Assembly: GCA_029213195.1 (NCBI GenBank)
Contig: JARGNI010000004.1
Span: 62,001-126,000, forward strand
Source: Verrucomicrobiales bacterium
Lineage (GTDB): Bacteria; Verrucomicrobiota; Verrucomicrobiia; Verrucomicrobiales; DEV007
DNA length: 64,000 nucleotides
Direction: 5' to 3'
The position numbers were made by a program, and so were the translations under genes. The notes below the pieces were generated by a model that was given only the letters and a program-made list of their open reading frames with translations, was not told where the DNA came from and ran no database searches. This document shows positions 1-15,688 of the stretch, in pieces; the first letter of the stretch is position 1, and each line of letters opens with the position of its first letter.

Positions 1-1614
1 CGCCAGCATCTCTTCTCGAGACGAGGCGACCAGGGCAGCGCGATGCTCGAAGTGTTTCCTTTCCGTGGCCGCGTGCACGCAGACCTCCCGTAGAGAAATG
101 TCAGGATGCTCTTCCAGCCACTGGCGATATCTTCCCGCGAGGTCGGAAACGGATTGCTCGGTACGCCCCCCTAACGGTAAGAGAAAACCATCTTCCGTGC
201 CGACCTCCTTCTCAAGCGAAATGCCATCGATGCGAGCTTCCTCGGGGGCTTCTGAAATCACGAGATGGGCATTGGTGCCGCTCATCCCGAAAGCACTGAC
301 TCCGGCAATCCTTTGATCATCCGAATCCCAGGCGGTCGCCTCTTTGACGACCTCAACGGGCAACTGATCCCAGGCGATATGCGGATTCGGCGTTTCGAAA
401 TGAAGGTGTGCCGGGATCTTCCGATGCTGAAGAGCGAGCACGGTCTTGATAACTCCCGCGATCCCCGCAGCCGCCTCGAGGTGCCCGAGATTGGTCTTCA
501 CCGAACCGACGAGAAGGGGATCGTCCTTGCTGCGACCTTCGCCGAGGACAGATGCCGCCGCATTCATCTCGATGGGATCTCCAAGCTCGGTCCCTGTACC
601 ATGAGCCTCGAGGTAGTCGATTTCCGAAGGCGCCACCCCGGCCTGTTCGAGGGCCTTGCGAATGACTCGCTGCTGCGAATCGGGATTGGGTGCGGTGAGA
701 CCGCTGCTGAATCCATTGTGAGTGATCGCCGATCCGCGAATAACCGCGAGAACCGGGTCGCCGTCGCGCAAGGCATCGGAAAGTTTCCGCAGGGTCACGA
801 CCCCACAGCCTTCTCCTCGCAAATATCCATCCGCAGAAGCATCGAAGGCTCGAGAATGCCCGGAAGGGGAAAGGGCATGCAGCTTGCAGGTCATGATCGT
901 CGTCTTGGGCGACGCCATGATGTTCACACCTCCCGCAATCGCCCGATCACATTCCCCCTGCCGCAGGCTCTGGCAGGCCAGGTGGAGGGCAACCAGCGAT
1001 GACGAGCAGGCCGTATCGATCGCGAGGCTGGGTCCCTGCACGCCGAGATAGTAAGAAAGTCGGCCACAGAGAAAGCTGCCGGCCGATCCGGTCGCAATGT
1101 AGGGGTTCAGGTCGAGGAGCGATTCGCTCGCCTCATTCTGGTAGTCGTTGTGCATCCAACCGACAAAGACCCCCGTGCTTTTGTCGGTGCGATCGGAAGC
1201 CCAGCCAGCTCGCTCGAGGGCTTCCCAGCCCACCTCGAGAAAGAGACGCTGCTGCGGATCGATCCAGGTTGCTTCCCGCGGAGAGATGCCGAAAAAATCG
1301 GCATCCATCTCGTCGATGTCCTCGAGGAACGTTCCCTTCCGGGCATACATTTTCCCCGGCACATCCGGATCCTCATCGTAGTAGGCATCGAGATCCCACC
1401 GATCCTCAGGAAGCTCGGTAACGACATCGGTTTCCTCGAGCAGGTTTTGCCAGAAAGCTTCCGGTGTATTCGAAGTCTTCGGAAATCGACAGGCCGTTGA
1501 GACGATCGCAATCGGATCGTTCCGATCGCTCTCCGCCTCGGCAAGCTTCTGCTTCAGCTCGCGAATCTTGGCGAGCGCTTCTTTGGCAGCCGAGGCAGCA
1601 TTGGATTGAGACAT
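1..1614 (-). CDS. Type I polyketide synthase, N-terminal part (ketosynthase), cut by window edge
   Basis: First 538 residues of a modular polyketide synthase; the frame is open to base 1, so the rest lies outside. Residues about 5-30 form a charged helix (KIRELKQKLAEAE) like a class of N-terminal docking coiled coils. A complete ketosynthase follows, with active-site Cys203 in DTACSSS, then HGTGT and NLGHLE carrying the two catalytic His. The last 80 residues (HFEHRAALVA) match the linker that precedes an acyltransferase domain, so an AT probably follows. It would extend the acyl group loaded on the upstream ligase-ACP by malonyl units. It starts 9 bases after the ligase stop in the same run. 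Family is certain; the product is not. Confidence 0.93.
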   Translation of the reverse strand, partial: MSQSNAASAAKEALAKIRELKQKLAEAESDRNDPIAIVSTACRFPKTSNTPEAFWQNLLEETDVVTELPEDRWDLDAYYDEDPDVPGKMYARKGTFLEDIDEMDADFFGISPREATWIDPQQRLFLEVGWEALERAGWASDRTDKSTGVFVGWMHNDYQNEASESLLDLNPYIATGSAGSFLCGRLSYYLGVQGPSLAIDTACSSSLVALHLACQSLRQGECDRAIAGGVNIMASPKTTIMTCKLHALSPSGHSRAFDASADGYLRGEGCGVVTLRKLSDALRDGDPVLAVIRGSAITHNGFSSGLTAPNPDSQQRVIRKALEQAGVAPSEIDYLEAHGTGTELGDPIEMNAAASVLGEGRSKDDPLLVGSVKTNLGHLEAAAGIAGVIKTVLALQHRKIPAHLHFETPNPHIAWDQLPVEVVKEATAWDSDDQRIAGVSAFGMSGTNAHLVISEAPEEARIDGISLEKEVGTEDGFLLPLGGRTEQSVSDLAGRYRQWLEEHPDISLREVCVHAATERKHFEHRAALVASSREEMLA

Positions 1615-1623
1615 GGGGGAAAT

Positions 1624-3576
1624 TTATTCGTTGAGCTCCTTCAGGAGAGCTTGCATGGCTTCCTCCTCGGACATTTCGTCGATCGACTTGGATGGGGCCG
1701 CTTTCGTTTCGGAGGGAGCCGCCGGTTCCGGTTTCTCCGCACCCAGACCGAGAACCCCGATGAGATAGGATACGAGATCACCGATGCGAGGGTAGTCAAA
1801 AACCAGGGTAGCCGGAAGATCGAGGTTGGGGCCGAGCTGGTCCTGGAGGCGGGTGCTCAAGGTAATCATCATCACCGAGTCCATCCCCGTCTCGAGGAGG
1901 GCGGTATCGACCGCCGGAACCTCGTCCGCTCCGGTGAGCCCGCGGATCTCCTCCTGGAGAAACTCCGTCAGCATTCTCTCCCGGGCCGAGCGGTGAGCAG
2001 CCTTGAGGGCTTGCAGCAGCGCAGCCTCCGGTTTTTCTTCTGTCTGTTTCCACTCGACACCATCGACGACCACGGGTGCGGAAAGTGTCGGATCGACGGG
2101 GTGTTCCCGCAGCACCTTCTTGAGAACCTTGCCCGCCGGATTCCTGGGAAGCTCATCGACGAAGACAATCTGCCCGGGGACCTTGTAGGAAGCGAGGTGC
2201 TCGAGGCAATAGGATCGAATCGGCTCCCCTTCCGGATCGGTCTCGGAATCGGAAACGACAAAACCGACCACACTTTCGCCCCAGATCGGGTCCGGGCATC
2301 CCACGACCGAGCAATCGGCCACCCCTGGGGCATCGAGAAGAACTCGCTCCACTTCGGACGGGAAGACTTTCATCCCGCCCACGGCAATCATGTCCTTGAT
2401 CCGATCGACGATGAAGAAGTAGCCCTTTTCATCCTGTCGTCCCACGTCTCCGGAGTGAAACCAACCATCCTTGACCGCTTCGGCAGTATCCTCAGGTCGG
2501 TTCCAATAGCCCAGCATGACATTCGGACCTCGGACCACGATCTCCCCAGTTTCCCCCGCAGGGCAGGTTTCCCCTGTTTCTTCATCGACGACCTTCATTT
2601 CAACGAGATCGACCGGAACCCCGATCGAACCCGGAACATGCTGGAGGGGATGGTTGTAGGAAGCAAAGGGGGCCGTTTCCGTCAGCCCGTAGCCTTCATA
2701 GATGGGCATCCCGAACTTCTTCGCCCAGCTTTCCCCCAGCTGGGGAGCGAGGGTCGCGGCGGCACAGAAACAGTAGTGGATGCTCGCGAGGTCTTCCGGC
2801 TCGCAGGCGTCCTGCATCAGCTGAAAGGTTGTCGGTACTCCGAAAAGCTTGGTCACTTTTTCGTTTCGGATCAGGTCGAGGGCTTCGGACAAATCGAAAC
2901 GGCGCTGCAGTACGATGGTTGCCCCGACATTCAATCCCGAATTGAGCAGGGCATTCTGCCCGTAGCAATGGAAGAGCGGAACGACGAGGAGCAGCCGATC
3001 CTCCGGGGTCATACCACAAAGGTGATTGAAGGAGTGCACGGTGGAACGCACATTCTGATGGGAAAGAGTCGCGCCTTTGGGAAATCCCGTGGTCCCGGAG
3101 GTGTAGAGAATGATGGCCGCGTCGTTCGGTTCACCCTCGAAATAGGTGCCCGCAGGCAGACCTTCCTCTTCCTCCAGCTTCTGCTCGTCAAAACCGGCCC
3201 CATCGTCGGATACGCGGATGACCTGTCCTTCAAATCCGGAAAGGGTTTCCGATCCTCCCGCGGAGGCGATCAGAAGCTTGGCTCCGCAATCTGAAAGAAT
3301 GAATTCAACCTCCTCCTCGGCCAGCCGGGTATTCACCGAGACGGCAATGGCACCGAGACGGAGCGCTCCGTAGTACCAGACCGGAAACGCAGGTAGATTG
3401 GCCAGGCAAAGAGCGACCCGATCTCCCTCCTCCACCCCGGCGCCTTCGAGGACACGGGCGGCTTTCCCCGAAAGCCTCTCGAGGTCGGCATAGGTGTAGC
3501 TCTCTCCTTCGAAAACGATGGCGTCCGAGTCGGGAAAGATCCGATACCCGTCGATGATGCACTGACAGACATTCAT
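1624..3576 (-). CDS. AMP-dependent acyl/aryl-CoA ligase fused to a C-terminal acyl carrier protein
   Basis: 650 residues. The N-terminal adenylation domain has the P-loop-like YTSGTTGFPKG (about 158-168), YEGYGLTE, GWFHSGDVG and the C-terminal catalytic Lys in PRNPAGKVLKK. A carrier domain follows at about 535-605; Ser567 in GMDSVM is the expected phosphopantetheine site. The tail ends in a Pro/Ala linker and an acidic helix (EMSEEEAMQALLKELNE) that looks like a PKS docking helix. It probably activates the lyase product and loads it in cis on its own ACP for the following PKS. It lies 18 bases after the lyase gene and 9 before the PKS. Substrate is inferred from neighbours; a fatty acid cannot be excluded. 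Confidence 0.9.
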   Translation of the reverse strand: MNVCQCIIDGYRIFPDSDAIVFEGESYTYADLERLSGKAARVLEGAGVEEGDRVALCLANLPAFPVWYYGALRLGAIAVSVNTRLAEEEVEFILSDCGAKLLIASAGGSETLSGFEGQVIRVSDDGAGFDEQKLEEEEGLPAGTYFEGEPNDAAIILYTSGTTGFPKGATLSHQNVRSTVHSFNHLCGMTPEDRLLLVVPLFHCYGQNALLNSGLNVGATIVLQRRFDLSEALDLIRNEKVTKLFGVPTTFQLMQDACEPEDLASIHYCFCAAATLAPQLGESWAKKFGMPIYEGYGLTETAPFASYNHPLQHVPGSIGVPVDLVEMKVVDEETGETCPAGETGEIVVRGPNVMLGYWNRPEDTAEAVKDGWFHSGDVGRQDEKGYFFIVDRIKDMIAVGGMKVFPSEVERVLLDAPGVADCSVVGCPDPIWGESVVGFVVSDSETDPEGEPIRSYCLEHLASYKVPGQIVFVDELPRNPAGKVLKKVLREHPVDPTLSAPVVVDGVEWKQTEEKPEAALLQALKAAHRSARERMLTEFLQEEIRGLTGADEVPAVDTALLETGMDSVMMITLSTRLQDQLGPNLDLPATLVFDYPRIGDLVSYLIGVLGLGAEKPEPAAPSETKAAPSKSIDEMSEEEAMQALLKELNE

Positions 3577-3594
3577 GAGCAGAGAGTAGTCCTT

Positions 3595-5283
3595 TTAGAG
3601 AGCAAACTCAATCTCATCCAAGGTCTCAAGGAGAGGAGCGACAGTAAACGGAAGAGATCCGCCCTCGGTCAGATCCCGCTTCAAGGTTTCCACGAGATTC
3701 TCGAGAGGGAAATCCTGATCGTTGAAGAGGAGAGGGCGATCCTTTCCAGGCTCTCTCCCGGCCGCCTCGTAGACGACTTCGTAGACTCTCGAGATCAGGG
3801 GACTCAGCAAAGCCCGGCCATCGTAGTGACGATCGGTCGCGAAACTTCGCAGATCGGCGCCCTGGACTCCAAAGATGAGGGCAATGGGGAGATAGTTCGC
3901 ATACAGGTCGACAGACTGACTCGCCAGATTGGCCGCTCCCCAGCTGAGACCGTTGATATTCTGGTTGTATTGCTCCGCATGGGTCGGGAAATGCTCGACA
4001 TGTGGATTTCCGAGATAGGTCAGCATCGGCATGATGGAATTGCCGGTGATCTGCAAGCCCTTGAGCCCCATATTGATCGGGGACTCCTGGTTGCCGACCA
4101 GCGATGCGGGGAGGCCATGATTGAATTCCGGGGAAACCAGGTGAGCAATCTGGACGTCGAGGTGCTTCGCGAGCAGACCGAGGCAACGGCGAAGATCATC
4201 CATCGCCATCCCGACATACTGACCAAGGAAATTGCCGCTCTGGAGGAATCGTCCCGCTCTCACATCGATCAGTGGATTGTCGGTGACCGAATTCATCTCG
4301 GTCTCGATAGTTCGCTGCACCCGAAGAATCCCTTCGACGAGCGGACCGAAATACTGGGGAAGACAGCGGAGCGAGTAACGATCCTGAAGATGATTCCGAT
4401 CATCGACATCAGCCTTCTCATTCTGTGCCTCGTCGATCCCGAGGAGACTCCGCATCGTCTTCGCCGTCCAGATCTGACCGGGGTGCGGTTTGCACTCGTG
4501 GACAAAGGGATCGAAGGGATCCTGATGCCCGAGCAAGGATCGGATCATCATGGCATGGGCTGCGAGGGAAAGCCCAAGATAGGTGCGGGAGGCCGAGACA
4601 CAATTCGCGGCGATGGCCGAGGAAAAGGTCGTACCATTGATCATGGCGAGGGCTTCCTTGGGGCGAAGCTCCAGCGGTGGCAGCCCCATCTCCACGAGGG
4701 CATCATCGCGATCGAGATGACGACCATCGGCTTCGACCTGGCAGGACGCCGCCTGACCAGTGATAGCACGAGCAATCGTAGCCAGGGGAACGAGGTCTCC
4801 ACTCGCACCGATCGAGCCCAACTCTTTCACGATGGGAGTGACCCCGTGATTCAAGAAATAGAGATACCTCTCGATCAACTCGATCCGCACTCCCGAAGCG
4901 CCATGGAGGAGCATGTTGGCACGCAGCAGCATCGCCGCTCGAACATGAATACCATTGATCGGAGTTCCGGCTCCGCAGGAGAGAAACGAAAGCAGGTTTT
5001 CTTGTGATGCATTGGCCAGGTCGGAAGGGACTTCCTGGTTCGCCAAGCTCCCAAAACCGGTCGTCAAGCCATACACTTTCCACTGATTCTCGACCGCTTC
5101 GTCGACAAGATTCTGCGCATCCTGCAGTCGCGCCAGCGTATCCGGGTCGGCAGTCAGGGTGACACGGCGCCCCCCAGCTGCAACGCTGTAGACCTCTGAA
5201 ACAGAGAGCGTTTGTCCACTGAGACGCAGTGCTGACTCCTCTTTCCGCAGAGGAGTCACCATATTACAGCTAGGGTTCGACAT
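3595..5283 (-). CDS. Aromatic amino-acid ammonia-lyase (MIO type), probably phenylalanine-selective
   Basis: 562 residues, the usual length for bacterial PAL/TAL/HAL enzymes. Ala160-Ser161-Gly162 in GSIGASGDLVPL would cyclise to the MIO electrophile; Tyr71 in VYGLTTGFG is the catalytic Tyr of the inner loop. The selectivity pair that is His-Leu in tyrosine lyases and Ser-His in histidine lyases reads Phe100-Leu101 (NLLSFLSCG), as in phenylalanine lyases, so trans-cinnamate is the likelier product. An MIO aminomutase of the same fold is the main alternative. It feeds the ligase-ACP gene 18 bases downstream. A 114-base gap with a small hairpin separates it from the RND gene, so it may also have its own promoter. 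Confidence 0.92.
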   Translation of the reverse strand: MSNPSCNMVTPLRKEESALRLSGQTLSVSEVYSVAAGGRRVTLTADPDTLARLQDAQNLVDEAVENQWKVYGLTTGFGSLANQEVPSDLANASQENLLSFLSCGAGTPINGIHVRAAMLLRANMLLHGASGVRIELIERYLYFLNHGVTPIVKELGSIGASGDLVPLATIARAITGQAASCQVEADGRHLDRDDALVEMGLPPLELRPKEALAMINGTTFSSAIAANCVSASRTYLGLSLAAHAMMIRSLLGHQDPFDPFVHECKPHPGQIWTAKTMRSLLGIDEAQNEKADVDDRNHLQDRYSLRCLPQYFGPLVEGILRVQRTIETEMNSVTDNPLIDVRAGRFLQSGNFLGQYVGMAMDDLRRCLGLLAKHLDVQIAHLVSPEFNHGLPASLVGNQESPINMGLKGLQITGNSIMPMLTYLGNPHVEHFPTHAEQYNQNINGLSWGAANLASQSVDLYANYLPIALIFGVQGADLRSFATDRHYDGRALLSPLISRVYEVVYEAAGREPGKDRPLLFNDQDFPLENLVETLKRDLTEGGSLPFTVAPLLETLDEIEFAL

Positions 5284-5296
5284 GTTGGTTTCGTGC

Positions 5297-5312
5297 GACG
5301 AGTAAACTCGTC
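5297..5312 (-). other. Small hairpin in the leader of the ammonia-lyase gene
   Basis: GACGAG-TAAA-CTCGTC forms a perfect 6-bp stem 14 bases before the lyase start codon. It has no following T-run, so it is not a standard terminator. It could tune translation or mRNA processing between the pump genes and the biosynthetic genes. A TATAGT box on the minus strand lies just upstream of it (about 5318-5325), which would suit an internal promoter. Confidence 0.35.
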
Positions 5313-5397
5313 TCCTTACTATAGACCGATTTCTACCGAAAAAGATAGGATGGACCAGTTGAAAAAGAATGCATAAAAAGGGCCAAAAAAAGTCTCG

Positions 5398-8300
5398 TCA
5401 CGCCTTTTTTTTCGGATTTGAAGCTTTCTTGGTCGTTCCCGTCCGCTTTCGAGCCGTTTTTTTGCCAGAAGCACGCTTGCGACGCGCCGACTTTTTCGGA
5501 GGAATAGTCTGCTCGACCGGCATGGCGGCTTTTCCGAAGATGACGAGGTAGAGGCAAGGCACGAAGAAGAGAGCCAGCAAAGTCGCTCCGGCAACACCGC
5601 CCGCGATCGTAATCGCCACCGGAGGCCAGAATCCCCCTCCACTCATGATCAAGGGAATGAATCCCACCATCGTCGTCAGCGACGTGGCCACGATATGACG
5701 AGTCCGCCTCACGATGATGTCGGCCAGTTCTTCGATATTCCCCCACTTGGCTGCCTCGGAATCACGAATCCCCGCTAGCACGACGATCGCATCATTCACC
5801 GCAACTCCGACCAGGCCCATGGTCCCGACCACTCCCATGAATCCATAGGGAAAATCGAACAGCCAGATCGCAAGCAGCCCCAGACCGATCGAGAGTCCCC
5901 CGACGATGGCGATGATCATCGCGGCACGAAAGGAACGGAACGCGCTGACGAGTGTCGCAATCATCAGTGCGATCAGCAGTCCCACATTCGCCATGAGGTC
6001 CCCGACGGCTTCATCCCGCTTTTTCGCTTCTCCACCGAACTCCATGGAGTACCCCACCGGCAATACAAAGTCGGAAGCATCGAGACGCTCGCGAAAATCG
6101 GTGATGACCACATCCGGGAGAACTCCCGCGGTGACGTAGGCCTTGATCTCATTCACTCGCTCTCCATCCCGACGCAGGATGGCAGAGGCATCCGATCCCA
6201 GCTCGAAGGAACTGATCGCCGAGAGAGGCGTACCCTGGGCAGAGCGCCCGCGAGGGCCCAGTGCCCGGATCTGCAGGGAAGAAATGGCGTTCGCATCGCT
6301 TCTCACCTCCTCCTTGAGCTTCACCCGGATCGGAAGCTCTTCGGTTACCTCGATGAGAGTGCCCGCCTCCATTCCTTCCAGCGAAGTGTAAAGCTGTTGG
6401 GACAACTCCTGGTGGGAAAGACCGGCCATGCGGGCTTCCCATTCGTCGACTCGCAAAGCGAGCTTGGGAACCGACTCCGACAAGTCCGCCCGGGTGTGCA
6501 CCACCTCCACGGTTTCGGTGAGGAGAAGTCGAATCTCGCTCCCCAGTTGCTGGAGTTTCGCGAGATCCGGACCATAGAGCTGGACCTCGACCGGCGCGTC
6601 GAAGGCCGGACCCTGTTCGAGCTGCCGGACCAGGATTCGCGCTTCCGAAAACTGCTCGTCCAATGTCTCCTGCAGCTCCCGGATGACCTGGCGCGAATTC
6701 ATCTCGGGCTTCAATTCCACGTAGGCTTCTCCATAGAAGGGAGAATGCTTCCTCCGAGGAATCACGTTGTAGAAAAAAATGGGAGCACTCTCGCCGAGAA
6801 ACCAATGGACCCGGGAGACGGATTCATTCTCGAGAATGACTTCCCTCATCTCCTGCGCAAACCGCTCGGTCTCCTCAAGGCTCGATGAAGCGGGCAGCTC
6901 CAGCTCGATGCGGAACTGATCGCGATCGGTGGGCGGAAAGAACTGCTCGGACAGCTCACTCGATTTGTAGAATCCAAGAATCGGCAGCGAAACCCCCAGG
7001 AGGATCCCGATCACGGGGAATCGAAGCAGATGAACCAACGACCAGCGGTAGACTCGGGCCAGCGGTTCGCTGTTGAATCCGTAGGCCCAGAATCCCGACT
7101 TCTGCCCATTCTTCCTCCGCGGTTGGACCAGCGCCGTGAGCGCGGGCACGACCGTCATCGCAAGGAGGAAGGATGCATTGATCGCAAGAATCACACTGAC
7201 GGCAATCGACCCGACAAATTCCCCGCTCGATCCCGGCAGAATCGCAATGGGCATGAAAGCGAAGGTCGTCGTGAGAGTGGATCCGAAAAGGGGAAGGGCG
7301 AGATGCTTGATCGTATCGGTGATGGCACGAGCCGGAGTCTTGCCGGATCTCATCGCCGCCCTGACCTCGTCAACAATGACAATGGCGTTGTCGATCAGGA
7401 GTCCGAGAGCAATGATCAGTCCCGTCACCGACATCTGGTGAATGGGAATTCCGAGAAATCGCATTCCCGTGATCACGATGAGCGCAGAGAGAGGGAGCGC
7501 TGCCCCGACCACGATCATGCTGCGCCAGCCCATCAATAGAAAGATGACCCCCACCACCGCACCAGTAGCGAGGAGAAGATTCCAACCAAGTTGACCAAGG
7601 CGTTCCGTGACATAGCGGTCCTGGGAGAAGATCTCCGTGATCTCCACCCCGGCCGGAAGCGATTCCTGGAACATTTCCAGGTCGGCCTGGAGATTGGACG
7701 CCCATTTGTCGATGCGGTAGTCGTCTTCGACAAAAACGCCCAGCACGATCGCGGTCGTGCCATCGACGAGAGCGTGACTTTCCGGCGGAGCGGCAAAAGC
7801 CTTGCGCAGATCCGCGATTTCCGACAACTCGACAAGCTGGCCTCTCTGTCCGTAGCGGATCGGCGTTTTTCCAACCCTCTTCAAAGTGCCGAAGTCCTCA
7901 TCGATCTCGATCACGAGCCCATTCTCGCTACCGCGAAAAATCCCTGCAGATGCCTTGGCTTCGCTTGCTTCGATCTGCTTCGCCACATCCGCTACGGTCA
8001 ATCCGAGGCCGTCGAGAACTTGGGTGGAAAACTCGACGAGAATTTCCTCTTCGGGCGCTCCATAGACGAGGACGCTCTCGGTGCCACTGACTCCCCGTAT
8101 GACCTGGGCCAATTCTTCCCCGATCCGATTCAAGATCGCGAGATTGACTTCCTCTGAATTCCTCGTCGGGCGGATTCCCAGGATCGAAGCGTAGGCCTTG
8201 AGCTCGGGCTGTCGGAAGTCGGGCTCGAAACTTCCCTCTGGCAGGCTTTTCGCCACTTCGGATAATTCGTCCCGGACTCGAGACCAGACCGTATCGACAT

Positions 8301-8595
8301 CGGTGATCCGCTCCTCCAACTCGACACTGATGGTCGAAATTCCGGCCATGCTCTCCGAAAAGACTTCCTTGATGCCACTGACGGTTCGGATCCCATCCTC
8401 GAGCGGCTGAGTGATCTGGGATTCGATCCTTTCCGCATTCGCTCCCGGAAGTACGGTTCGCACCACACCGAACCGCTCCGTCAGGGGCGGGTCCTCCATC
8501 TGGGGAAGCGTGGTGTAGGAAGAAAATCCCGCCACCGCGATCACTCCGACGACCAGGAGCAGGAGCCGCGGATTTTCAAAGAGCAGTTTCGCCAT
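5398..8595 (-). CDS. RND-family efflux pump, inner-membrane transporter
   Basis: 1065 residues, normal size for an HAE1/AcrB-like proton antiporter. The N-terminal membrane segment (LLLLVVGVIAVAGF), porter-domain start (TLPQMEDP), and two blocks of membrane helices with the intramembrane acidic motif ALGLLIDNAIVIVDE are present. Its start codon overlaps the adaptor stop (TGATG). The last 35 residues are an unusual Lys/Arg/Ser-rich tail (KKSARRKRASGKKTARKR) resembling histone-H1 tails; by family topology it would be cytoplasmic. Genomic position suggests export of the polyketide product or an intermediate, but pumps of this family also export drugs. No TolC-like gene is next to it. Confidence 0.93.
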   Translation of the reverse strand: MAKLLFENPRLLLLVVGVIAVAGFSSYTTLPQMEDPPLTERFGVVRTVLPGANAERIESQITQPLEDGIRTVSGIKEVFSESMAGISTISVELEERITDVDTVWSRVRDELSEVAKSLPEGSFEPDFRQPELKAYASILGIRPTRNSEEVNLAILNRIGEELAQVIRGVSGTESVLVYGAPEEEILVEFSTQVLDGLGLTVADVAKQIEASEAKASAGIFRGSENGLVIEIDEDFGTLKRVGKTPIRYGQRGQLVELSEIADLRKAFAAPPESHALVDGTTAIVLGVFVEDDYRIDKWASNLQADLEMFQESLPAGVEITEIFSQDRYVTERLGQLGWNLLLATGAVVGVIFLLMGWRSMIVVGAALPLSALIVITGMRFLGIPIHQMSVTGLIIALGLLIDNAIVIVDEVRAAMRSGKTPARAITDTIKHLALPLFGSTLTTTFAFMPIAILPGSSGEFVGSIAVSVILAINASFLLAMTVVPALTALVQPRRKNGQKSGFWAYGFNSEPLARVYRWSLVHLLRFPVIGILLGVSLPILGFYKSSELSEQFFPPTDRDQFRIELELPASSSLEETERFAQEMREVILENESVSRVHWFLGESAPIFFYNVIPRRKHSPFYGEAYVELKPEMNSRQVIRELQETLDEQFSEARILVRQLEQGPAFDAPVEVQLYGPDLAKLQQLGSEIRLLLTETVEVVHTRADLSESVPKLALRVDEWEARMAGLSHQELSQQLYTSLEGMEAGTLIEVTEELPIRVKLKEEVRSDANAISSLQIRALGPRGRSAQGTPLSAISSFELGSDASAILRRDGERVNEIKAYVTAGVLPDVVITDFRERLDASDFVLPVGYSMEFGGEAKKRDEAVGDLMANVGLLIALMIATLVSAFRSFRAAMIIAIVGGLSIGLGLLAIWLFDFPYGFMGVVGTMGLVGVAVNDAIVVLAGIRDSEAAKWGNIEELADIIVRRTRHIVATSLTTMVGFIPLIMSGGGFWPPVAITIAGGVAGATLLALFFVPCLYLVIFGKAAMPVEQTIPPKKSARRKRASGKKTARKRTGTTKKASNPKKKA

Positions 8596-9821
8596 CAGGG
8601 AGCGTCCTCGGGTTCTGTCGTTCCCTCCTCGGTCTCTGCGCCGCCCTCTTCGACCTCATCCGCTTTCTCTTCGGGCGCCGGGCTACCGGGCGCCGGATCT
8701 GATTCCGCTTCCGCCGTTTCTTCCGCGGCAGCTTCCTCCTCCGCAGTGGTCTCGCCTTCTTTCGTTTCGACATCTTCCGGAAGGACTTCACCCTCCCGAC
8801 GAATCCGTTGACCCGGGACCACTCGATGGACCCCCTTGGCGATGTATTCGAACTCCTTTGCGTCCATCCCTCGGACCCGCGCACGATCTCCTTCGACATG
8901 GATCACTTCGAGATAGCGGCGAGCAACCCGGGAAATCTCTTTCTCATCCTTCTCCACCACGAAAACCGACCAGAGTCCTCTCATTTCCCGAGTCAGGGCA
9001 CTCAGTGGGAGCCAGAATCCTGCCCCCGTTTCCTCTCGATCGAGACGCAGCCGGACGACATCACCAGCGGTGACTTCCTCGGCGGTGGCTTCATCCAGCG
9101 AAAAGAGCACGGTCTGGGTCCGCGTCGTCAGATCGACCTCCGGCAATACGGCCTGCACCTCGGCAGTGATGGTTTGATCCCCAACCTGCAACTCCTTCCT
9201 GTCGCCTTCCCTCAGTTCGACAGCGACATCACCGGGAAGGGAGACCAGGGCCTCAAGATTGCCTCTTTCCACCAGCCGAACCACTGGATGCCCCGGACTC
9301 GCCATGGAGCCCACATTCATGTGCCGGATGGTCACAGTCGCATCGAAAGGCACTTTCAGCTCGCTGTCTTCAAGGTCGAGATTGACGAGGTCCAGGTCCG
9401 TCTGCGTCACTGGTTTTCCGGCAGGAGGCTGCTGAGGATTGACCGGTTGGTCGAGCGCTTCCTCGTAGGCGTCCTTCTGCAATTCCAATCTCCGGGTATC
9501 CAGTTTCGCGATCACCTGCCCTTCGTCGACGAGATCTCCGACCTCGAGATCCATCTCGATGATTTGTCCGGCACGGGAGAATCCCACATCCATCGTACGA
9601 GCCGACTGGATGATCCCGGAATACTCGCGCGGAATCGAGAAAGAGTTCGTCGGAGTGGCCGTCTCCGTTTCGACCGTAATGATCTTCTGCTCCGCATCAT
9701 CAGGCTGTTCCTCTGCGGAGCCTGGAGTCCCCTTGCCCTGCAAGAGGACGACGGCAATCAAGGCGCCCAGGAGGAGGCAAACTACGCCGGAAAAGAATAC
9801 GTTGGCCTTCTGCAGGTTCAT
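8595..9821 (-). CDS. RND periplasmic adaptor (membrane fusion protein)
   Basis: 408 residues. One N-terminal membrane anchor (VVCLLLGALIAVVLLQ, about 13-28), then a lipoyl half-motif (VGDLVDEGQVIAKLDTRRLELQ), a second half (KVPFDATVTIRHMNVGSMASPG) and beta-barrel domains. The alpha-helical hairpin normally between the lipoyl halves is reduced to about 40 residues with a Pro-rich stretch (QPVNPQQPPAGKP). The last 65 residues are almost entirely Glu, Ala, Thr and Pro, a long acidic tail not typical of the family. It is 9 bases after the halogenase-like gene and overlaps the pump gene by one base, so it is clearly the pump's partner. Confidence 0.9.
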   Translation of the reverse strand: MNLQKANVFFSGVVCLLLGALIAVVLLQGKGTPGSAEEQPDDAEQKIITVETETATPTNSFSIPREYSGIIQSARTMDVGFSRAGQIIEMDLEVGDLVDEGQVIAKLDTRRLELQKDAYEEALDQPVNPQQPPAGKPVTQTDLDLVNLDLEDSELKVPFDATVTIRHMNVGSMASPGHPVVRLVERGNLEALVSLPGDVAVELREGDRKELQVGDQTITAEVQAVLPEVDLTTRTQTVLFSLDEATAEEVTAGDVVRLRLDREETGAGFWLPLSALTREMRGLWSVFVVEKDEKEISRVARRYLEVIHVEGDRARVRGMDAKEFEYIAKGVHRVVPGQRIRREGEVLPEDVETKEGETTAEEEAAAEETAEAESDPAPGSPAPEEKADEVEEGGAETEEGTTEPEDAP

Positions 9822-9830
9822 GGTGTCGAA

Positions 9831-11435
9831 TCAAATTCCCAGGGCTTCGAAGACCCGACCCAGCCGCTCTTCGCGCGGTCCGGATACGGTTCCGGAGAGT
9901 TCTTCGGCGACCTGGGAATGGAAAGCGCCCCGGCCCATGATCTCCGAGGCCAGCTCTTCGAGAATGCGGGTGTTTCGATGGAAGCGCTCTCGCAAGGCGG
10001 CTTCATCGAGCGGTTGTCGCAACTCGCCGTTGAGCTGAGAGAGTATCGTGATCTCGTTCTGGTTCACAAAGGTAGGGGATTCCTCGCAGACGGAATCCGC
10101 CGCATCCCAATCCCGAAGGAATTTCTGCATGCCCTTGTTCAGCTCTCGAATCTTCTCGATCGGCTCTGCCATGGAAGCAAAAAATCGGGGATCTGTCAGC
10201 TTTCCGTTGAAATAGAGCAAGGCCGGAAAACTCCAGTAGAGGGCGTAGTCCCAGACATATTTCAGGGACATGACCCGAGGGTTCCCGAAAAGCGGATACT
10301 GATCTTCGTAGGTTCGCAGATTGTCCTCGAACAACTGGAGGTAGAGCCCCTGGTAACGGGGTGCCGAGAGTCCGATGGACTCCCCCGCCTGATCTTCTGC
10401 GATCAGGGCACAAATCTGCGTATTGGCCATCGCAATGTAATCGATTCCCGGGGAATAAAGAGGATCGAGGAAGACCCCAGCCTCGCCGGTAATCGCCCAT
10501 CGATCCGCCGAGTAGACCTGCTTGCAACTGTGGGCGATCTGCTTGATCGCCTTGAAATCCTGGACCTTCTCCCGGTGGGGAGCCAGCGCTTCCGCGCAGA
10601 GAGGCTCGTGGCGCGCGATCCAATCGATGGCTTTTTCGAATTGATTGAACTCGTTGAGAGGATGAACTCTCGGGTCGGCGACGATCCCGAAGCTGGTCGC
10701 ACCGGAAGCGAGTGGGATGATCCAGATCCAATACCCCCGCCCCAGGAGATGGTTGGTACTCAACCAGCGACGCTGCACCTTGCCCGTGCGTGATTTCCAA
10801 TCCGGATTGTCACTCCAGCAATCCACACAGATTTCCGCCCCGATGCGAAACCAGGCTGCGTTGATCTGGTGTGAGACCGATTCTTTCAGTCCGAGCTTTC
10901 GTTTCAACAGTCCAGCCCGACCACTCGCATCGACGACCCAGCGAGACTGGACCCGGTGTCGTTTTTTCTCCTGGTCCTCATACTCGACTTCGTGAAGCTC
11001 ATCCCCCTCGCGCAGATCGATCTCACGGACAAAGGACTCGCGCTCGATTCGGACCCCTTCGGCGACCAGGTCCGTGTGCAGGTGATTCTCGAGTCGGCCT
11101 CGATCGATCTGGTATCCCGGAGTGGGGAAAAAATCACTCAATCCGACCTCGATCGCCTCATCGAAAGATTCCATCCCTCCATCAAAGAAAAAGCGCAGAC
11201 CGAACTTGGGGAGATGCTCTTCAACCAGGTGTTTTTTCAACCCGACCTCTTCTGCGAGGTAATGAGCGCCCACTTCGATGGTCGACTCGCCCACCTTGAA
11301 AGCGCCCTCCGGAACCGGATGAGAGCGACGCTCCAGGATGAGAATTTGAAGATCCGGCTGCTGGTTGCGCAACTGGCGGGCCAAGGTCAAACCGGCGAGG
11401 CCGCCGCCCAGGATCGTAACATCGAATGAACTCAT
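9831..11435 (-). CDS. Flavin-dependent halogenase-like oxidoreductase, paralogue 1
   Basis: 534 residues from ATG 11435; a longer frame upstream lacks a sensible start. The FAD-binding GGGLAGL is at residues 10-16, the substrate loop KVGESTIEVGAHYL at 47-60, and the halogenase signature WxWxIP is intact (Trp236, Trp238, Pro241). Lys77 in LPKFGLRFFF sits where the catalytic Lys of flavin halogenases lies. GVFLDPLYSPG is the second flavin contact. It heads the run leading to pump, lyase, ligase and PKS. Likely roles are chlorination or another flavin-dependent oxidation of the aryl polyketide. Members with this signature that do not halogenate are known, so the chemistry is open. Confidence 0.8.
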   Translation of the reverse strand: MSSFDVTILGGGLAGLTLARQLRNQQPDLQILILERRSHPVPEGAFKVGESTIEVGAHYLAEEVGLKKHLVEEHLPKFGLRFFFDGGMESFDEAIEVGLSDFFPTPGYQIDRGRLENHLHTDLVAEGVRIERESFVREIDLREGDELHEVEYEDQEKKRHRVQSRWVVDASGRAGLLKRKLGLKESVSHQINAAWFRIGAEICVDCWSDNPDWKSRTGKVQRRWLSTNHLLGRGYWIWIIPLASGATSFGIVADPRVHPLNEFNQFEKAIDWIARHEPLCAEALAPHREKVQDFKAIKQIAHSCKQVYSADRWAITGEAGVFLDPLYSPGIDYIAMANTQICALIAEDQAGESIGLSAPRYQGLYLQLFEDNLRTYEDQYPLFGNPRVMSLKYVWDYALYWSFPALLYFNGKLTDPRFFASMAEPIEKIRELNKGMQKFLRDWDAADSVCEESPTFVNQNEITILSQLNGELRQPLDEAALRERFHRNTRILEELASEIMGRGAFHSQVAEELSGTVSGPREERLGRVFEALGI

Positions 11436-11443
11436 GGTGGAGT

Positions 11444-11456
11444 GGACAAAATGTCC
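11444..11456. promoter_or_regulatory. Candidate operator in the leader of the metabolite operon
   Basis: GGACA-AAA-TGTCC is a perfect 5-bp inverted repeat starting 9 bases upstream of the paralogue 1 start codon. It lies in the 179-base space between the two divergent halogenase-like genes, which also holds AT-rich boxes (TATAAT at 11495-11500 on plus). No regulator gene is adjacent, so the binding protein is unknown. Confidence 0.3.
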
Positions 11457-11614
11457 GGAAACATGACAGCCAACTCTTTGGCTATTCCGTATCCTATAAT
11501 CTAACACAACCTTGACAAGTCGTCATTCGTCAGGCTCCTTTCTCTACCGTCCGGGGAAAACCTTTTCTCTGCTGAGAGGAGGGTTGGCTTTCCACGAACC
11601 ACCCCATCCATCCC

Positions 11615-13309
11615 ATGAATCCATCCTCGGAGCAATACGACGTCACCATCCTCGGAGGAGGTCTTGCCGGTCTCACTTGCGCACTGCACTGCCTCAAAGA
11701 ATCTCCCGACGCGAAGATTCTTGTTCTTGAAAAAGGCGCTCATCCGGTCCCGGAGTCGGCTCACAAGATCGGCGAATCGAGTGTCGAAGTAGGCGCCCAC
11801 TATTTCCGTGAATTTCTCGGCCTCGAAGAGCATCTCGAAAACGACCAGATCCCCAAGATGGGACTGCGACTCTTCTTCGACTGGGAAGACAATTCCCAGA
11901 TCGACAAGAGACTCGAGCTGGGCGGTACGAACTTCCCTCCCGCCCCCAGCTATCAGTTCGACCGGGGGCGATTTGAAAACTATCTCGGTGAAAGAGTCCG
12001 TTCCCTCGGAATTGATTTTCGCGATGAGACGCGCGTCAAGCAGGTCGACCTCAAGGGTGGACGAGCCCGTCACATCGTCGACTACGAGAAGGATGGAGAG
12101 AAGGGGCAGGTGCACTCGCGCTGGGTCGTCGACGCGACCGGGCGTGCCGGCTTTCTGAAGAAGAAGCTTGGCCTGAAGAAGGAATGCTCTCACAAAGCGA
12201 GCTCGGCCTGGCTGCGAATCGGAAAACGCGTCAAGGTCGACGACTGGAGCACGGACGAGAAGTGGCAGGAGCACTTCAGCGAAGACCATCCCCGCTGGCA
12301 AAGCACGAACCACCTCCTCGGGGAAGGCTACTGGATCTGGCTCATCCCTCTCGCCTCGGGTTCCACCAGCATCGGGATCGTCGCCGACGAAGCCCTGCAC
12401 CCCATCAGCGGATTCAACTCGCAGGAAAAAATGCTTTCCTGGATCGAAGAGAGAGAGCCGCAACTCGCCGCCGATCTGCGGGAAAACGAATCCCTGATCC
12501 AGGACTTCTCCGCGATCAAACGCTACTCCATGGAGTGTGGGCAGATGTATTCGACGAAGCGCTGGGGAATCGTAGGTGACGCCGGATTTTTCATCGATCC
12601 GTTCTACTCCCCGGGGAATGACTTCATCGCCTTGAGCAATTCGTTCGTCTGCGAACTGATCAAGAGAGACCTCGCCGGGAAATCCAACCTCGTCCGAGTC
12701 CCGCTCTACAATCACCTCTTCGGACTGTTCTTCAACGGAACGGGATTGATCTTCAAGGAGAACTACCCGGTATTCGGGAATCACCAGGTCATGCCCATCA
12801 AGATTCTCTGGGACTGGATGGTCTATTGGACCATCACCGGACACATCTTCATCCAGGGGCGCCTTTGCCAGCCGGGAATGTATGCCCGGCACATGATGCA
12901 TCTGAAACGCCTCAATGATCTCAATCATGATCTCCAGGCCCACTTCCGTAGGTGGAACAAGGAGAAACCGAGTCACGAAGTCGGCGGGACCATCGACACT
13001 TCGAAGCTGTGTTTCATCATGGATACCAATCGCCGACTGATCGATCAGCTGGACGACAAGGGGTTCTCGGAGCGTTTCGCCTCGAACGTGGCGCAGATGG
13101 AAACCCTCTTCTGGGAGATCGTGGACCACTCGGGAATGGAGATCGAAACCTCCATCAAACGTCGGGAACACTCCGATGTCGTCCGAGGAGGAATCGACAT
13201 GGTGTTTTCGATGGTTTCGCAGGAGCCCGGAGCTCCCGGGATGAATTCCGAAGAAACGGAAGAGTCCTCCGCAAAGAGCAAAGTGGAAGAACCGGCCATG
13301 ACCAGCTGA
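11615..13309 (+). CDS. Flavin-dependent halogenase-like oxidoreductase, paralogue 2
   Basis: 564 residues, divergent from paralogue 1 and clearly its relative: GGGLAGL at 14-20, KIGESSVEVGAHYF at 51-64, Lys81 in IPKMGLRLFFDW, and WxWxIP at Trp240/Trp242/Pro245 (GYWIWLIPLASG). The second flavin contact reads GFFIDPFYSPGND. The last 35 residues are Glu/Ser-rich and specific to this copy. It stands alone on the plus strand with its own promoter region and a hairpin at its stop codon. It would act on the same product family as paralogue 1, perhaps at a second ring position or step. Confidence 0.8.
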   Translation: MNPSSEQYDVTILGGGLAGLTCALHCLKESPDAKILVLEKGAHPVPESAHKIGESSVEVGAHYFREFLGLEEHLENDQIPKMGLRLFFDWEDNSQIDKRLELGGTNFPPAPSYQFDRGRFENYLGERVRSLGIDFRDETRVKQVDLKGGRARHIVDYEKDGEKGQVHSRWVVDATGRAGFLKKKLGLKKECSHKASSAWLRIGKRVKVDDWSTDEKWQEHFSEDHPRWQSTNHLLGEGYWIWLIPLASGSTSIGIVADEALHPISGFNSQEKMLSWIEEREPQLAADLRENESLIQDFSAIKRYSMECGQMYSTKRWGIVGDAGFFIDPFYSPGNDFIALSNSFVCELIKRDLAGKSNLVRVPLYNHLFGLFFNGTGLIFKENYPVFGNHQVMPIKILWDWMVYWTITGHIFIQGRLCQPGMYARHMMHLKRLNDLNHDLQAHFRRWNKEKPSHEVGGTIDTSKLCFIMDTNRRLIDQLDDKGFSERFASNVAQMETLFWEIVDHSGMEIETSIKRREHSDVVRGGIDMVFSMVSQEPGAPGMNSEETEESSAKSKVEEPAMTS

Positions 13310-13328
13310 TTCGCCTCTGCGAATCAGC
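13305..13328 (+). terminator. Hairpin overlapping the stop codon of halogenase-like paralogue 2
   Basis: GCTGATTCGC-CTCT-GCGAATCAGC forms a perfect 10-bp stem that includes the TGA stop. No clear T-run follows, so termination may be inefficient or the hairpin may protect the 3' end. The convergent DUF2141 gene ends 28 bases further on. Confidence 0.5.
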
Positions 13329-13355
13329 AATGATCTCGCGCACGCGCCCGGGAAA

Positions 13356-13775
13356 CTAGTCCACCAGCTGAATGGTGATCTTCCCGCCCTCTTCAGGAAC
13401 CAGGAAAGTCGTCTCTTCGTACTTGGGGGGACCGAGAGCCGTACCGGGATTGTTGGAGAATCCGTAGGGCTCGACGGGCTTGGCAAAGAAGCCTTTCTTG
13501 TCGAGGACGTTGTTCATGTTCTGATCCCAGATCACCGCGAGGGAGTAGATGCCTGGAGGCAAATCTTTCGCAACGGCAACAAGAGGACCGGCCTCCATCA
13601 CTTTTACGAGGGGAGATTGAGGAATGGGATTCTCCTGGAAATCTTCTTCTTTATCGAAGAAGCCGATGAGGACCTGCCCTTTCACTTCATCAATTCCCAA
13701 CACTGTAACCTCCACATCAGCGGCAAGAAGCGCATTCGTAGCAAGGAGACCCAAGGTTAAAAGAAATCCTTTCAT
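13356..13775 (-). CDS. Secreted DUF2141-family protein
   Basis: 139 residues. Residues 1-19 (MKGFLLTLGLLATNALLAA) are a signal peptide, so the protein is periplasmic or secreted. The body has the DUF2141 pattern: an early beta strand (GQVLIGFFD), DLPPGIYSLAVIWDQN, an Asp/Asn-rich turn (NMNNVLDKKGF) and PVEPYGFSNNPGT. The function of the family is unknown; a ligand-binding beta-sandwich is plausible. It lies between two halogenase-like genes and is transcribed like paralogue 3, which suggests a link to the pigment or metabolite locus. Confidence 0.75.
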   Translation of the reverse strand: MKGFLLTLGLLATNALLAADVEVTVLGIDEVKGQVLIGFFDKEEDFQENPIPQSPLVKVMEAGPLVAVAKDLPPGIYSLAVIWDQNMNNVLDKKGFFAKPVEPYGFSNNPGTALGPPKYEETTFLVPEEGGKITIQLVD

Positions 13776-13788
13776 ATAGTAAGGTAAA

Positions 13789-13806
13789 CTTAAATATTAA
13801 TTTAAG
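13789..13806. promoter_or_regulatory. AT-rich inverted repeat upstream of the DUF2141 gene
   Basis: CTTAAA-TATTAA-TTTAAG is a perfect 6-6-6 inverted repeat 14 bases before the DUF2141 start codon, in the 62-base gap after paralogue 3. Position suits an operator or promoter element. No binding protein can be named. Confidence 0.3.
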
Positions 13807-13837
13807 CGAGACAAAAACTAGTCAGATTGGCATCTGA

Positions 13838-15688
13838 TTAGTAGGGCGCTGCCTCTGGAACGTGCCGATTCTCTATCTTGTTAGAAGAATCCGTTTCGGA
13901 TTTGGGGGCACCATCGGGTTCTTCCTCTGCCCAGGGGATCAGTCTGCGATCAAATTCGTAGTTCTCGGAAAAGTGTTTTTCCTGCTCCAGGAAGCGGGTG
14001 TGCCCCGGTCGCCCGCGAACCTCCCACCGATGGATCCATTCTCCCATCGTGGTATAGAGAAACCAGCCGGTCAACTTGGTGAAGAGACGAATGGATCGAG
14101 GTTCCAGCAGCCCATAGATTCCCCCATTCTTGATCCGCAACTTTCCATAGAGGATCCCGATATAGAAGATGCTCTTCCGGATTCCCTTGAGGGCATTGAG
14201 ACGACGTTTTTCATACTTGCTGTTCTGGCGAAAATCGTCCCAGAGACGCAAGGGATTGTATCCGAACGGCATCTGATCCGTACGGGTGTAGTTCAGCATA
14301 CCCAGCTTCTTTCCGGATTCCTGGGCGGCACTGAGCTCCGCATAGAAGGAAGAAACCACCGAACGCGGTCCGTGAAAGAAGGTTCTCGTGAGCTTGAAAA
14401 ACTGCCCGATGAAATCCGGCTCGAGATGCCACTTCCCCGCAAACATCGGCACGAGAATCCCAAACCAGAAGATCGACTCGAAATAGATCCTCCAGCTCAT
14501 GGCATTGGCATCGCCGAGATGCTCTGCGTGTCTTTGATAGACTCGGTTGTAGACCCGCGAGGCCTGCAGGATATACTCGTCGTAAAGAGCGCGACGAGCG
14601 TCGGCGAGCTCGTTCCCTTCACGCTTCAGGCGGATCACCTCCGTCACCCCTTCGATATTCTGAGCTGCAAGGACAAGTCCCGTTGAATAGAACGGATCAA
14701 ACATGTTCGCCGCTTCTCCAATGACATACCACTGGTCTTCGGACAGCATCTCCTTGCTGGCATGGGCAATGCGAGGAAGATACTTGAAATCGAGAACCTC
14801 CCCGCTCTCGATCATGTCGAAGAGAATGCGCTGATTGGCCTTGAGGAAGGCGAGAAACTTTGCTCGCGAATTGATATCGCTGCTTTTGATCACGCTCTTG
14901 TGATGAACGATCCCAATCGAGAGCGCCCGTGATCCGGTTTCGATCGGGATCATCCAGATCCAATACCCGTTTCCAAACCAGTGGTTGGTTCCGTAGTAGT
15001 GACTTGCGGAGCCATTCGTCGGATCGCGCTCCTTCTCGAACAACTCTCTCTCCACCCCATCCACTCGCAGCCAGGCCGAGCCGGTGTCGAGACCCGCCAA
15101 CTTCTCCGGATCGGTGATGAGGTTATCGAGCTTCTTCCCAAGAAGGAATTTCCGACCCGCGGCATCAATGAGGTGATGCGTCTGAAACTCGACGATCCCC
15201 TCGTGGGTGCGCACGGTGGCCGAGTTGAGTTCTTCTTTCGAATTGATCTCGGTGTCGACCACCTTTCCCTCGATGAACTCGACCCCCATCTCGATACACA
15301 TCTCGAGCAAGTCCTTCTCGAACTTCGCACGATTCAGCTGGTAGCTGGGAAGGTCGGGACTGCCGTTCGTCCAAATGTGATAGTAGTCATCGATCGTCTT
15401 CGTCTGATCGACACGTTTCGGCCAGTGAAAATTCAGACCATACTTGGGAGCGTGATTCTCGATCAGGTACTCATGCAACTCGAGTTCCTTGTAGAGGAAC
15501 ATGGCGCTGATCTCGACGAGGGACTCCCCCACCTTCATCTGGCGGTTTTCCGCCTCCGGTCCTTTCGGGTCGATCAGGCCCACCCGGAGACCCGGCACCT
15601 TCAGCATCAGGTGTCGTGCCTGGCAAAGGCCAGCGAATCCTGCTCCCATGATGAGAACATCGAAAACAGGCGAGTCCGATTTTTTCAT
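13838..15688 (-). CDS. Flavin-dependent halogenase-like oxidoreductase, paralogue 3 (divergent)
   Basis: 616 residues. GAGFAGL at 15-21, KVGESLVEISAMFL at 52-65, Lys82 in APKYGLNFHW, and WxWxIP at Trp243/Trp245/Pro248 (GYWIWMIPIETG). The second flavin contact is NMFDPFYSTGL. It is longer than the other two, with a C-terminal region of about 200 residues rich in aromatic and basic residues (TFFHGPRSVV, IFYIGILYGKL) that could sit at the membrane. KYGxxFHW is closest to the form seen in halogenases acting on carrier-bound phenols or pyrroles; that is inference. It has its own 208-base upstream region on the minus strand. Confidence 0.78.
   Translation of the reverse strand: MKKSDSPVFDVLIMGAGFAGLCQARHLMLKVPGLRVGLIDPKGPEAENRQMKVGESLVEISAMFLYKELELHEYLIENHAPKYGLNFHWPKRVDQTKTIDDYYHIWTNGSPDLPSYQLNRAKFEKDLLEMCIEMGVEFIEGKVVDTEINSKEELNSATVRTHEGIVEFQTHHLIDAAGRKFLLGKKLDNLITDPEKLAGLDTGSAWLRVDGVERELFEKERDPTNGSASHYYGTNHWFGNGYWIWMIPIETGSRALSIGIVHHKSVIKSSDINSRAKFLAFLKANQRILFDMIESGEVLDFKYLPRIAHASKEMLSEDQWYVIGEAANMFDPFYSTGLVLAAQNIEGVTEVIRLKREGNELADARRALYDEYILQASRVYNRVYQRHAEHLGDANAMSWRIYFESIFWFGILVPMFAGKWHLEPDFIGQFFKLTRTFFHGPRSVVSSFYAELSAAQESGKKLGMLNYTRTDQMPFGYNPLRLWDDFRQNSKYEKRRLNALKGIRKSIFYIGILYGKLRIKNGGIYGLLEPRSIRLFTKLTGWFLYTTMGEWIHRWEVRGRPGHTRFLEQEKHFSENYEFDRRLIPWAEEEPDGAPKSETDSSNKIENRHVPEAAPY

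What the first reader, a model, noticed from the sequence alone, without database searches (positions are those of the whole stretch)
1..15688. Aryl-starter polyketide locus with three halogenase-like enzymes and a built-in RND pump
Seen: one minus-strand run of halogenase-like, adaptor, RND pump, MIO ammonia-lyase, ligase-ACP fusion and type I PKS, flanked by two more halogenase-like genes and DUF2141. Known: lyase plus ligase plus ACP plus ketosynthase makes aryl-primed polyketides (flexirubin, aryl polyenes, enterocin). Inference: the product is a cinnamoyl-primed polyketide, possibly chlorinated. The use of a modular type I PKS rather than discrete type II enzymes, and an RND exporter in the operon, distinguish it from the standard pigment loci.
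Basis: partly seen in the sequence, partly recalled or inferred. Interest (0 to 1): 0.8.

Follow-up and report, generated by a model that had tools for sequence, protein, structure and literature searches.

The report
Phenylalanine-primed polyene synthase with silent ketosynthase
A Verrucomicrobiota genome carries a gene cluster, shared with distantly related Planctomycetota, that probably turns phenylalanine into a phenyl-capped polyene with one reusable type I synthase; that synthase keeps a second condensing domain whose active-site cysteine has become serine in every relative examined.

Summary
The genes are real and the cluster is coherent. Read in full beyond base 1 it is 2611 aa: KS-AT-DH-KR-ACP-KS°-AT°. 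It has one working reducing module without ER or TE, then a second KS whose active-site Cys is Ser and an AT that has lost its GHSxG serine and its middle. The Ser is in all 11 second KS domains read, from two phyla. Both KS forms descend from one duplication. KS° is under purifying selection as strong as the active KS, while AT° is decaying.

The core (PAL, ligase-ACP, PKS, two halogenase-like flavoenzymes H1 and H2, usually an RND pump and adaptor) recurs in one Verrucomicrobiota genus and in Planctomycetota. The lyase carries the phenylalanine-type 'FL' motif, so the predicted starter is cinnamoyl. Best reading: iterative synthesis of a phenyl-capped polyenoate, with KS° as an in-cis chain-length-factor-like partner or Ser-based acyl-handling domain.

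Not found in the papers searched; no product known.

The parts
1..1614 (-). 5' part of the type I PKS gene (full gene G000:C81:55779-63614, 2611 aa): N-terminal coiled-coil-like docking segment and active KS1 (Cys at residue 203 of the protein; KS1 at about window 250-1518). Outside the window: AT (malonyl HAFH), DH, KR (LDD, B-type), ACP, then KS° (DTASSSSL) and truncated AT°; no ER, no TE
1624..3576 (-). AMP-dependent acyl ligase fused to an acyl carrier protein (GMDSVM); predicted cinnamate activating and loading enzyme
   Evidence: Pfam AMP-binding + PP-binding; best solved match feruloyl-CoA synthetase 8wev, also 4-coumarate-CoA ligases
3595..5283 (-). MIO-type phenylalanine ammonia-lyase: ASGD MIO triad, catalytic Tyr loop VYGLTTGFG, FL selectivity pair in NLLSFLSCG
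   Evidence: (PbPAL 9EQ5, 595 bits)
5398..8595 (-). AcrB-type RND permease
   Evidence: PF00873 E=2.6e-150; kept in most orthologous loci
8595..9821 (-). RND periplasmic adaptor (membrane fusion protein)
   Evidence: TIGR01730 above its cut-off; kept next to the pump in relatives
9831..11507 (-). H1, FAD-dependent halogenase-like enzyme (likely true start ATG at about 11435); GGGLAG, Lys of PKxGLR, WIWIIP, FLDPLYSPG
11615..13309 (+). H2, second halogenase-like enzyme, 41% identical to H1, divergently transcribed; same motifs
13356..13775 (-). small DUF2141 protein with signal-like N terminus; neighbour, role in the cluster uncertain
   Evidence: PF09912 E=9e-23; also near H2 in L021
13838..15688 (-). 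H3, third and more distant halogenase-like enzyme (23-24% to H1 and H2); neighbour, not in the conserved core

Best explanation
This is a biosynthetic gene cluster for a cinnamoyl-primed, probably polyenic polyketide. (1) The MIO lyase deaminates L-phenylalanine to trans-cinnamate (strongly supported by sequence). (2) The ligase-ACP protein activates cinnamate and puts it on its own carrier domain, which hands it to KS1 of the PKS (inferred from the fusion, gene order and docking-like ends). (3) The single KS-AT-DH-KR-ACP module extends it with malonyl units, ketoreducing and dehydrating each time but never reducing the double bond, most likely several times, giving a phenyl-capped polyenoyl-ACP (iteration is inferred). 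(4) The C-terminal KS°-AT° arose by duplication of KS1-AT1. KS° cannot condense in the usual way because its Cys is Ser and the gate Phe is Leu or Ile, yet it is strongly conserved. I propose that it pairs with KS1 as an in-cis chain-length-factor-like partner, or handles the finished chain through its Ser-His-His-Lys site, while AT° is a decaying leftover (inferred). (5) H1 and H2 modify the chain or ring by flavin-based halogenation or hydroxylation (reaction unknown). (6) The adaptor and RND pump move the product out of the inner membrane (inferred).
For: Domain content and complete active sites of KS1, malonyl-type AT (HAFH), KR and ACP. FL motif in the PALs of this clade, against YH in most cyanobacterial relatives; same FL pair as PbPAL. 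Ligase closest to feruloyl and coumaroyl ligases. Conserved gene set in Verrucomicrobiota and Planctomycetota. KS°: Ser in all 11 KS2 domains, single origin (100/100), sister to KS1 (98/94). dN/dS of KS° 0.04, equal to KS1 (0.04-0.06), against 0.22-0.28 for AT°. Cross-phylum identity KS1 about 70%, KS° 63%, AT1 50%, AT° 30%. A PAL-ligase-ACP fusion beside a single KS-AT-DH-KR-ACP PKS without KS° occurs in an alphaproteobacterial genome (L035), a plausible simpler form.
Against: No product is known. Iteration cannot be read from sequence: one extension to 5-phenylpenta-2,4-dienoate is also possible. Both catalytic His and the Lys are retained in KS°, which fits a catalytic role as well as or better than a purely structural CLF-like one. 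The verrucomicrobial DH has Asp or Glu in place of the Gly of HxxxGxxxxP. No thioesterase or other release enzyme is in the core. The structure model of KS°-AT° was too poor to use (pLDDT 64.5).
Confidence: 0.6

Rival explanations
1. Single-use (non-iterative) PKS: cinnamoyl is extended once to 5-phenylpenta-2,4-dienoyl and then passed on to an unknown acceptor; KS°-AT° is a dead second module.
For: Only one functional module is present; a KS-AT pair at a C terminus looks like a truncated next module.
Against: KS° is under purifying selection as strong as KS1 and the Ser is fixed in all orthologues read, which a dead remnant would not show; no acceptor or downstream module is conserved.
Confidence: 0.2
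2. KS° is catalytic, not structural: its Ser-His-His-Lys site forms an acyl ester or decarboxylates malonyl-ACP, so that it releases or transfers the finished chain in a system without a thioesterase.
For: Ser, both His and Lys conserved in the KS2 domains read; no TE in the PKS or core cluster.
Against: No biochemical precedent was found in the searches made; the gate Phe is replaced by Leu or Ile; AT° cannot load malonate.
Confidence: 0.25
3. H1 and H2 are not halogenases but flavin monooxygenases (hydroxylation or epoxidation of the polyene or ring).
For: The predicted ring is an unactivated phenyl, a poor substrate for flavin halogenases; the H1 model also matches hydroxylases such as kynurenine monooxygenase further down the list.
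Against: Lys of the PKxGLR site, WxWxIP and FxxPxxSxG are invariant in all 20 H1 and H2 sequences; the best sequence and fold matches are halogenases or unassigned flavoproteins (CtcP, PltA, CmlS, CndH).
Confidence: 0.4
4. An ordinary aryl polyene or flexirubin locus misread.
For: Shares aryl starter, polyene-type reduction and an RND transporter with APE clusters (PMC8253772).
Against: No type II KS/CLF, DH or KR genes; Phe-type not Tyr-type lyase; type I megasynthase.
Confidence: 0.03

Closest known systems
Celluxanthene (cex) cluster, iterative type I PKS CexF (PMC12144888)
   Same: Aryl-primed polyene made by an iterative type I PKS, with an acyl ligase and carrier protein
   Different: Starter is phenylacetate, not PAL-derived cinnamate; cex has a PPTase, two KASIII and a hydrolase; no PAL, halogenase or RND genes are listed in the sections read
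Aryl polyene (APE) clusters such as E. coli CFT073 (PMC8253772), with the ApeO-ApeC KS-CLF heterodimer (PMC8358021)
   Same: Aryl starter on an ACP, a KS paired with a KS-like partner, KR and DH without ER, an RND transporter
   Different: Type II discrete enzymes, hydroxybenzoate-type starter, LolA/LolB-like proteins; here type I, PAL, in-cis KS°-AT°, AcrB-type pump with adaptor
Flexirubin loci (FlxA tyrosine ammonia-lyase, NCBIfam NF053541)
   Same: MIO lyase plus ligase plus polyene chain
   Different: FlxA model matched far below its cut-off; FL not YH motif; type I PKS
PbPAL of Planctomyces brasiliensis (PDB 9EQ5; PMC5651878, PMC12535398)
   Same: Closest solved relative of the lyase; same pocket residues F93, L94, L205, K397, I401 by the alignment
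   Different: Studied as a biocatalyst; its natural pathway was not established in the passages read
FAD-dependent halogenases PltA, CmlS, CndH, CtcP
   Same: Fold and motifs of H1 and H2
   Different: Only about 15-22% identity; substrate and reaction unknown
PUFA synthase KS-CLF and type II KS-beta (own knowledge)
   Same: An inactivated KS kept beside an active KS
   Different: Here the change is Cys to Ser with both His kept, followed by a degenerate AT, at the C terminus of one chain

Membership tests
Phenylalanine ammonia-lyase (MIO) | ASGD MIO triad, catalytic Tyr loop, FL selectivity pair | tested here: met
   sequence
Phenylalanine ammonia-lyase (MIO) | Activity on L-Phe rather than Tyr or His; lyase rather than aminomutase | not testable with these tools
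   needs enzyme assay
Aryl polyene (APE) cluster | Discrete type II KS-CLF, DH, KR and ACP genes | tested here: not met
   one type I PKS instead; only five KS matches in the genome, three of them in long type I ORFs
Aryl polyene (APE) cluster | Aryl-capped polyene product | not testable with these tools
   needs expression and NMR or MS
Celluxanthene-type cluster | CexF-like PKS with two KASIII and PPTase genes | tested here: not met
   none in or next to the cluster
Flexirubin cluster | Tyrosine ammonia-lyase (FlxA) and type II PKS | tested here: not met
   FlxA model 234.6 bits against cut-off 700; FL motif
FAD-dependent halogenase | GxGxxG, catalytic Lys, WxWxIP, FxxPxxSxG | tested here: met
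   H1 and H2 in all relatives; H3 with one departure
FAD-dependent halogenase | Halide incorporation | not testable with these tools
   needs assay or MS isotope pattern
Chain-length-factor-like KS | Active-site Cys lost, paralogue of the active KS, conserved | tested here: met
Chain-length-factor-like KS | Heterodimer with the active KS, shaping chain length | not testable with these tools
   no usable model; needs structure and mutants

The most novel reading that the evidence does not exclude
A type I synthase that evolved its own in-cis partner by duplicating its KS-AT: the copied KS, fixed as Cys-to-Ser with both His and Lys kept, acts either as a built-in chain-length factor or as a serine-based chain-release domain, so that one polypeptide plus a PAL and a ligase-ACP does what a many-gene type II system does in standard aryl-polyene loci.
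Probability: 0.35. Interest if true: 0.75.

Novelty: new variant of a known kind. Interest (0 to 1): 0.55.

Why it matters
If right, it is a compact cluster family shared by two little-explored phyla, present in two Planctomycetota genomes assembled as single long chromosomes (G565, G566), with a clear starter prediction. Its conserved serine-KS is a natural test of what a non-condensing KS does in a type I enzyme: chain length, dimer partner or release. It may also give a natural setting for planctomycete PALs that have so far been studied as biocatalysts.

Tried and rejected
Reading 11501-13486(-) as a gene: rejected, it is antisense to H2. The other MIO-lyase hits of the first Verrucomicrobiota scan: 33-36% identity; the four put into the tree fall outside the PAL clade, so they were set aside as other MIO lyases. 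Cyanobacterial and Shewanella loci as the same cluster: rejected; the lyase sits with other enzymes, without this PKS. The 2698-aa PKS in G539 (L082) as a relative of the cluster: it is a ligase-KS-AT-MT-KR-ACP protein next to an NRPS gene, a different system. AlphaFold of KS°-AT°: too poor for a fold search. Literature searches for an inactive or Ser-type KS in polyene PKSs found nothing, and for this PAL/PKS/halogenase combination in planctomycetes nothing relevant.

Full report
WHAT IS THERE. The window is G000:C81:62001-126000 of a 5.9 Mb, 115-contig genome of a Verrucomicrobiota genus (related loci L021-L023 are titled Verrucomicrobiales MAGs, and appear to be the same genomes as the same-genus hits). 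H1, adaptor, RND pump, lyase, ligase-ACP and PKS lie on the minus strand with gaps of 114 bases or less. H2 is on the plus strand, divergent from H1. DUF2141 and H3 follow on the minus strand. Outside lie unrelated genes: an NMT1-like protein beyond the PKS and a glutamine cyclotransferase beyond H3.

THE SYNTHASE READ IN FULL. The sequence left of base 1 completes a 2611-aa protein: KS, AT, DH, KR, ACP, second KS, second AT. KS1 has DTACSSS, HGTGT and the second His motif; AT1 has GHSLG and the malonyl-type HAFH; KR has its cofactor site, catalytic Ser/Tyr/Asn and the LDD motif of B-type KRs; ACP has LGLDSL (motif meanings are established knowledge). There is no ER and no TE. KS2 reads DTASSSSL; AT2 reads GAGSG in place of GHSLG and lacks the middle of the domain. 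The N terminus (ALAKIRELKQKLAEA) looks like a PKS docking coil and the ligase-ACP ends in a short acidic helix-like tail; hand-off between them is inference.

CONSERVATION. A scan of genome contigs with the lyase found 30 loci, and whole-genome searches found more. Lyase, ligase-ACP and this PKS occur together in Verrucomicrobiota L021 and Planctomycetota L024, L025, L048, L084, L085, L086, L087, L089, L090 (L026 is a fragment with the same order). H1 and H2 follow the PKS in the planctomycete loci that reach that far. RND and adaptor genes are adjacent in most; in G566 they follow H2 (L087, L088). In genome G534 (L022, L077) the PKS lies on another contig, its second AT is almost gone, but KS2 with Ser remains. 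Within the genus the lyase was found in 4 genomes and not in the 20 other same-genus genomes listed; 7 of 170 genomes of the planctomycete order searched carry it. The distribution is patchy, so gain and loss or transfer is likely, but I did not test which.

THE SECOND KETOSYNTHASE. All 11 distinct KS2 domains read have Ser at the Cys position, as does a partial one in L021. In the tree of KS domains KS1 and KS2 each form one group (100/100) and are sisters (98/94), which fits one internal duplication before the Verrucomicrobiota and Planctomycetota loci separated. Between G566 and G565, dN/dS is 0.063 for KS1, 0.042 for KS2, 0.156 for AT1 and 0.278 for AT2; between G566 and G575 it is 0.041, 0.039, 0.101 and 0.216 (simple Nei-Gojobori counts). 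KS2 is therefore kept by selection while AT2 drifts. The Phe of the GVSAFGMSGTNAH loop is Leu or Ile in the KS2 domains read; a gating mechanism of elongating KSs is the subject of PMC7138838 (abstract only; that this loop is the gate is my own knowledge). Both His and the Lys remain.

STARTER. The closest solved relative of the lyase is 9EQ5, which is PbPAL (PMC12535398). PMC5651878 gives FL as the PAL motif and YH as the TAL motif. The clade of this cluster has FL; most cyanobacterial relatives have YH (the window's own FL, NLLSFLSCG, is read from the alignment because the script's pattern caught another stretch). The ligase is nearest to feruloyl-CoA synthetase among solved structures, with 4-coumarate-CoA ligases further down the list. 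Cinnamoyl is therefore the predicted starter.

TAILORING AND EXPORT. H1 and H2 (41% identical) share 103 invariant residues over 20 sequences, including the Lys of PKxGLR, WxWxIP and FxxPxxSxG; H3 keeps most but is 23-24% identical and not part of the core. The H1 model (pLDDT 76, pTM 0.83) is nearest to CtcP, a Cytophaga flavoprotein, CmlS, PltM and PltA. Flavin halogenases usually need an electron-rich site (established knowledge); an unsubstituted phenyl is not one, so chlorination of the ring is doubtful unless hydroxylation comes first. The pump is AcrB-type with its own adaptor. APE clusters also carry an RND transporter, ApeM (PMC8253772), so the pump is not a distinguishing mark in itself.

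COMPARISON. Iterative type I PKSs that make aryl polyenes are known (CexF, PMC12144888). A KS with a KS-like partner is known in APE clusters as ApeO-ApeC (PMC8358021). The combination of PAL, ligase-ACP, one-module PKS with in-cis Ser-KS and dead AT, and two halogenase-like enzymes was not found in the papers searched; the library lacks most subscription journals, and antiSMASH/MIBiG could not be queried. I file it as a new variant of a known kind.

WHAT IS SHOWN AND WHAT IS INFERRED. Shown from sequence: gene content, domain order, active-site residues, conservation, duplication origin, selection. Inferred: substrate of each enzyme, iteration, polyene product, role of KS°, chemistry of H1 and H2, export.

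Noticed in passing
L027, L029, L031, L037, L040 (cyanobacteria), L044 (Shewanella): Lyases related to this PAL sit with a ligase and, judged by eye from N-terminal sequences, a P450 (some), a ThDP-type enzyme and a KASIII-like protein; most cyanobacterial ones carry the Tyr-type YH motif. A separate conserved locus, not scanned by Pfam here.
   Followed up: partly
L035:10004-19266: Alphaproteobacterial MAG with PAL, ligase and ACP fused in one 1200-aa protein beside a KS-AT-DH-KR-ACP PKS without the second KS.
   Followed up: partly
L022:13546-14694: In one same-genus genome a sulfotransferase gene stands next to the ligase-ACP in place of the PKS, which lies on another contig.
   Followed up: no
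G000:C65:143397-144674 (L094): A second type I PKS-like ORF of about 4014 aa in the same genome, KS 44% identical to KS1.
   Followed up: no
window 13838-15688: H3, a distant halogenase-like enzyme, has a 68% identical relative in one same-genus genome on a different contig from the cluster, so it may serve another pathway.
   Followed up: partly
L082:8867-19998: One planctomycete carrying the cluster also has a ligase-KS-AT-MT-KR-ACP PKS followed by an NRPS gene.
   Followed up: no
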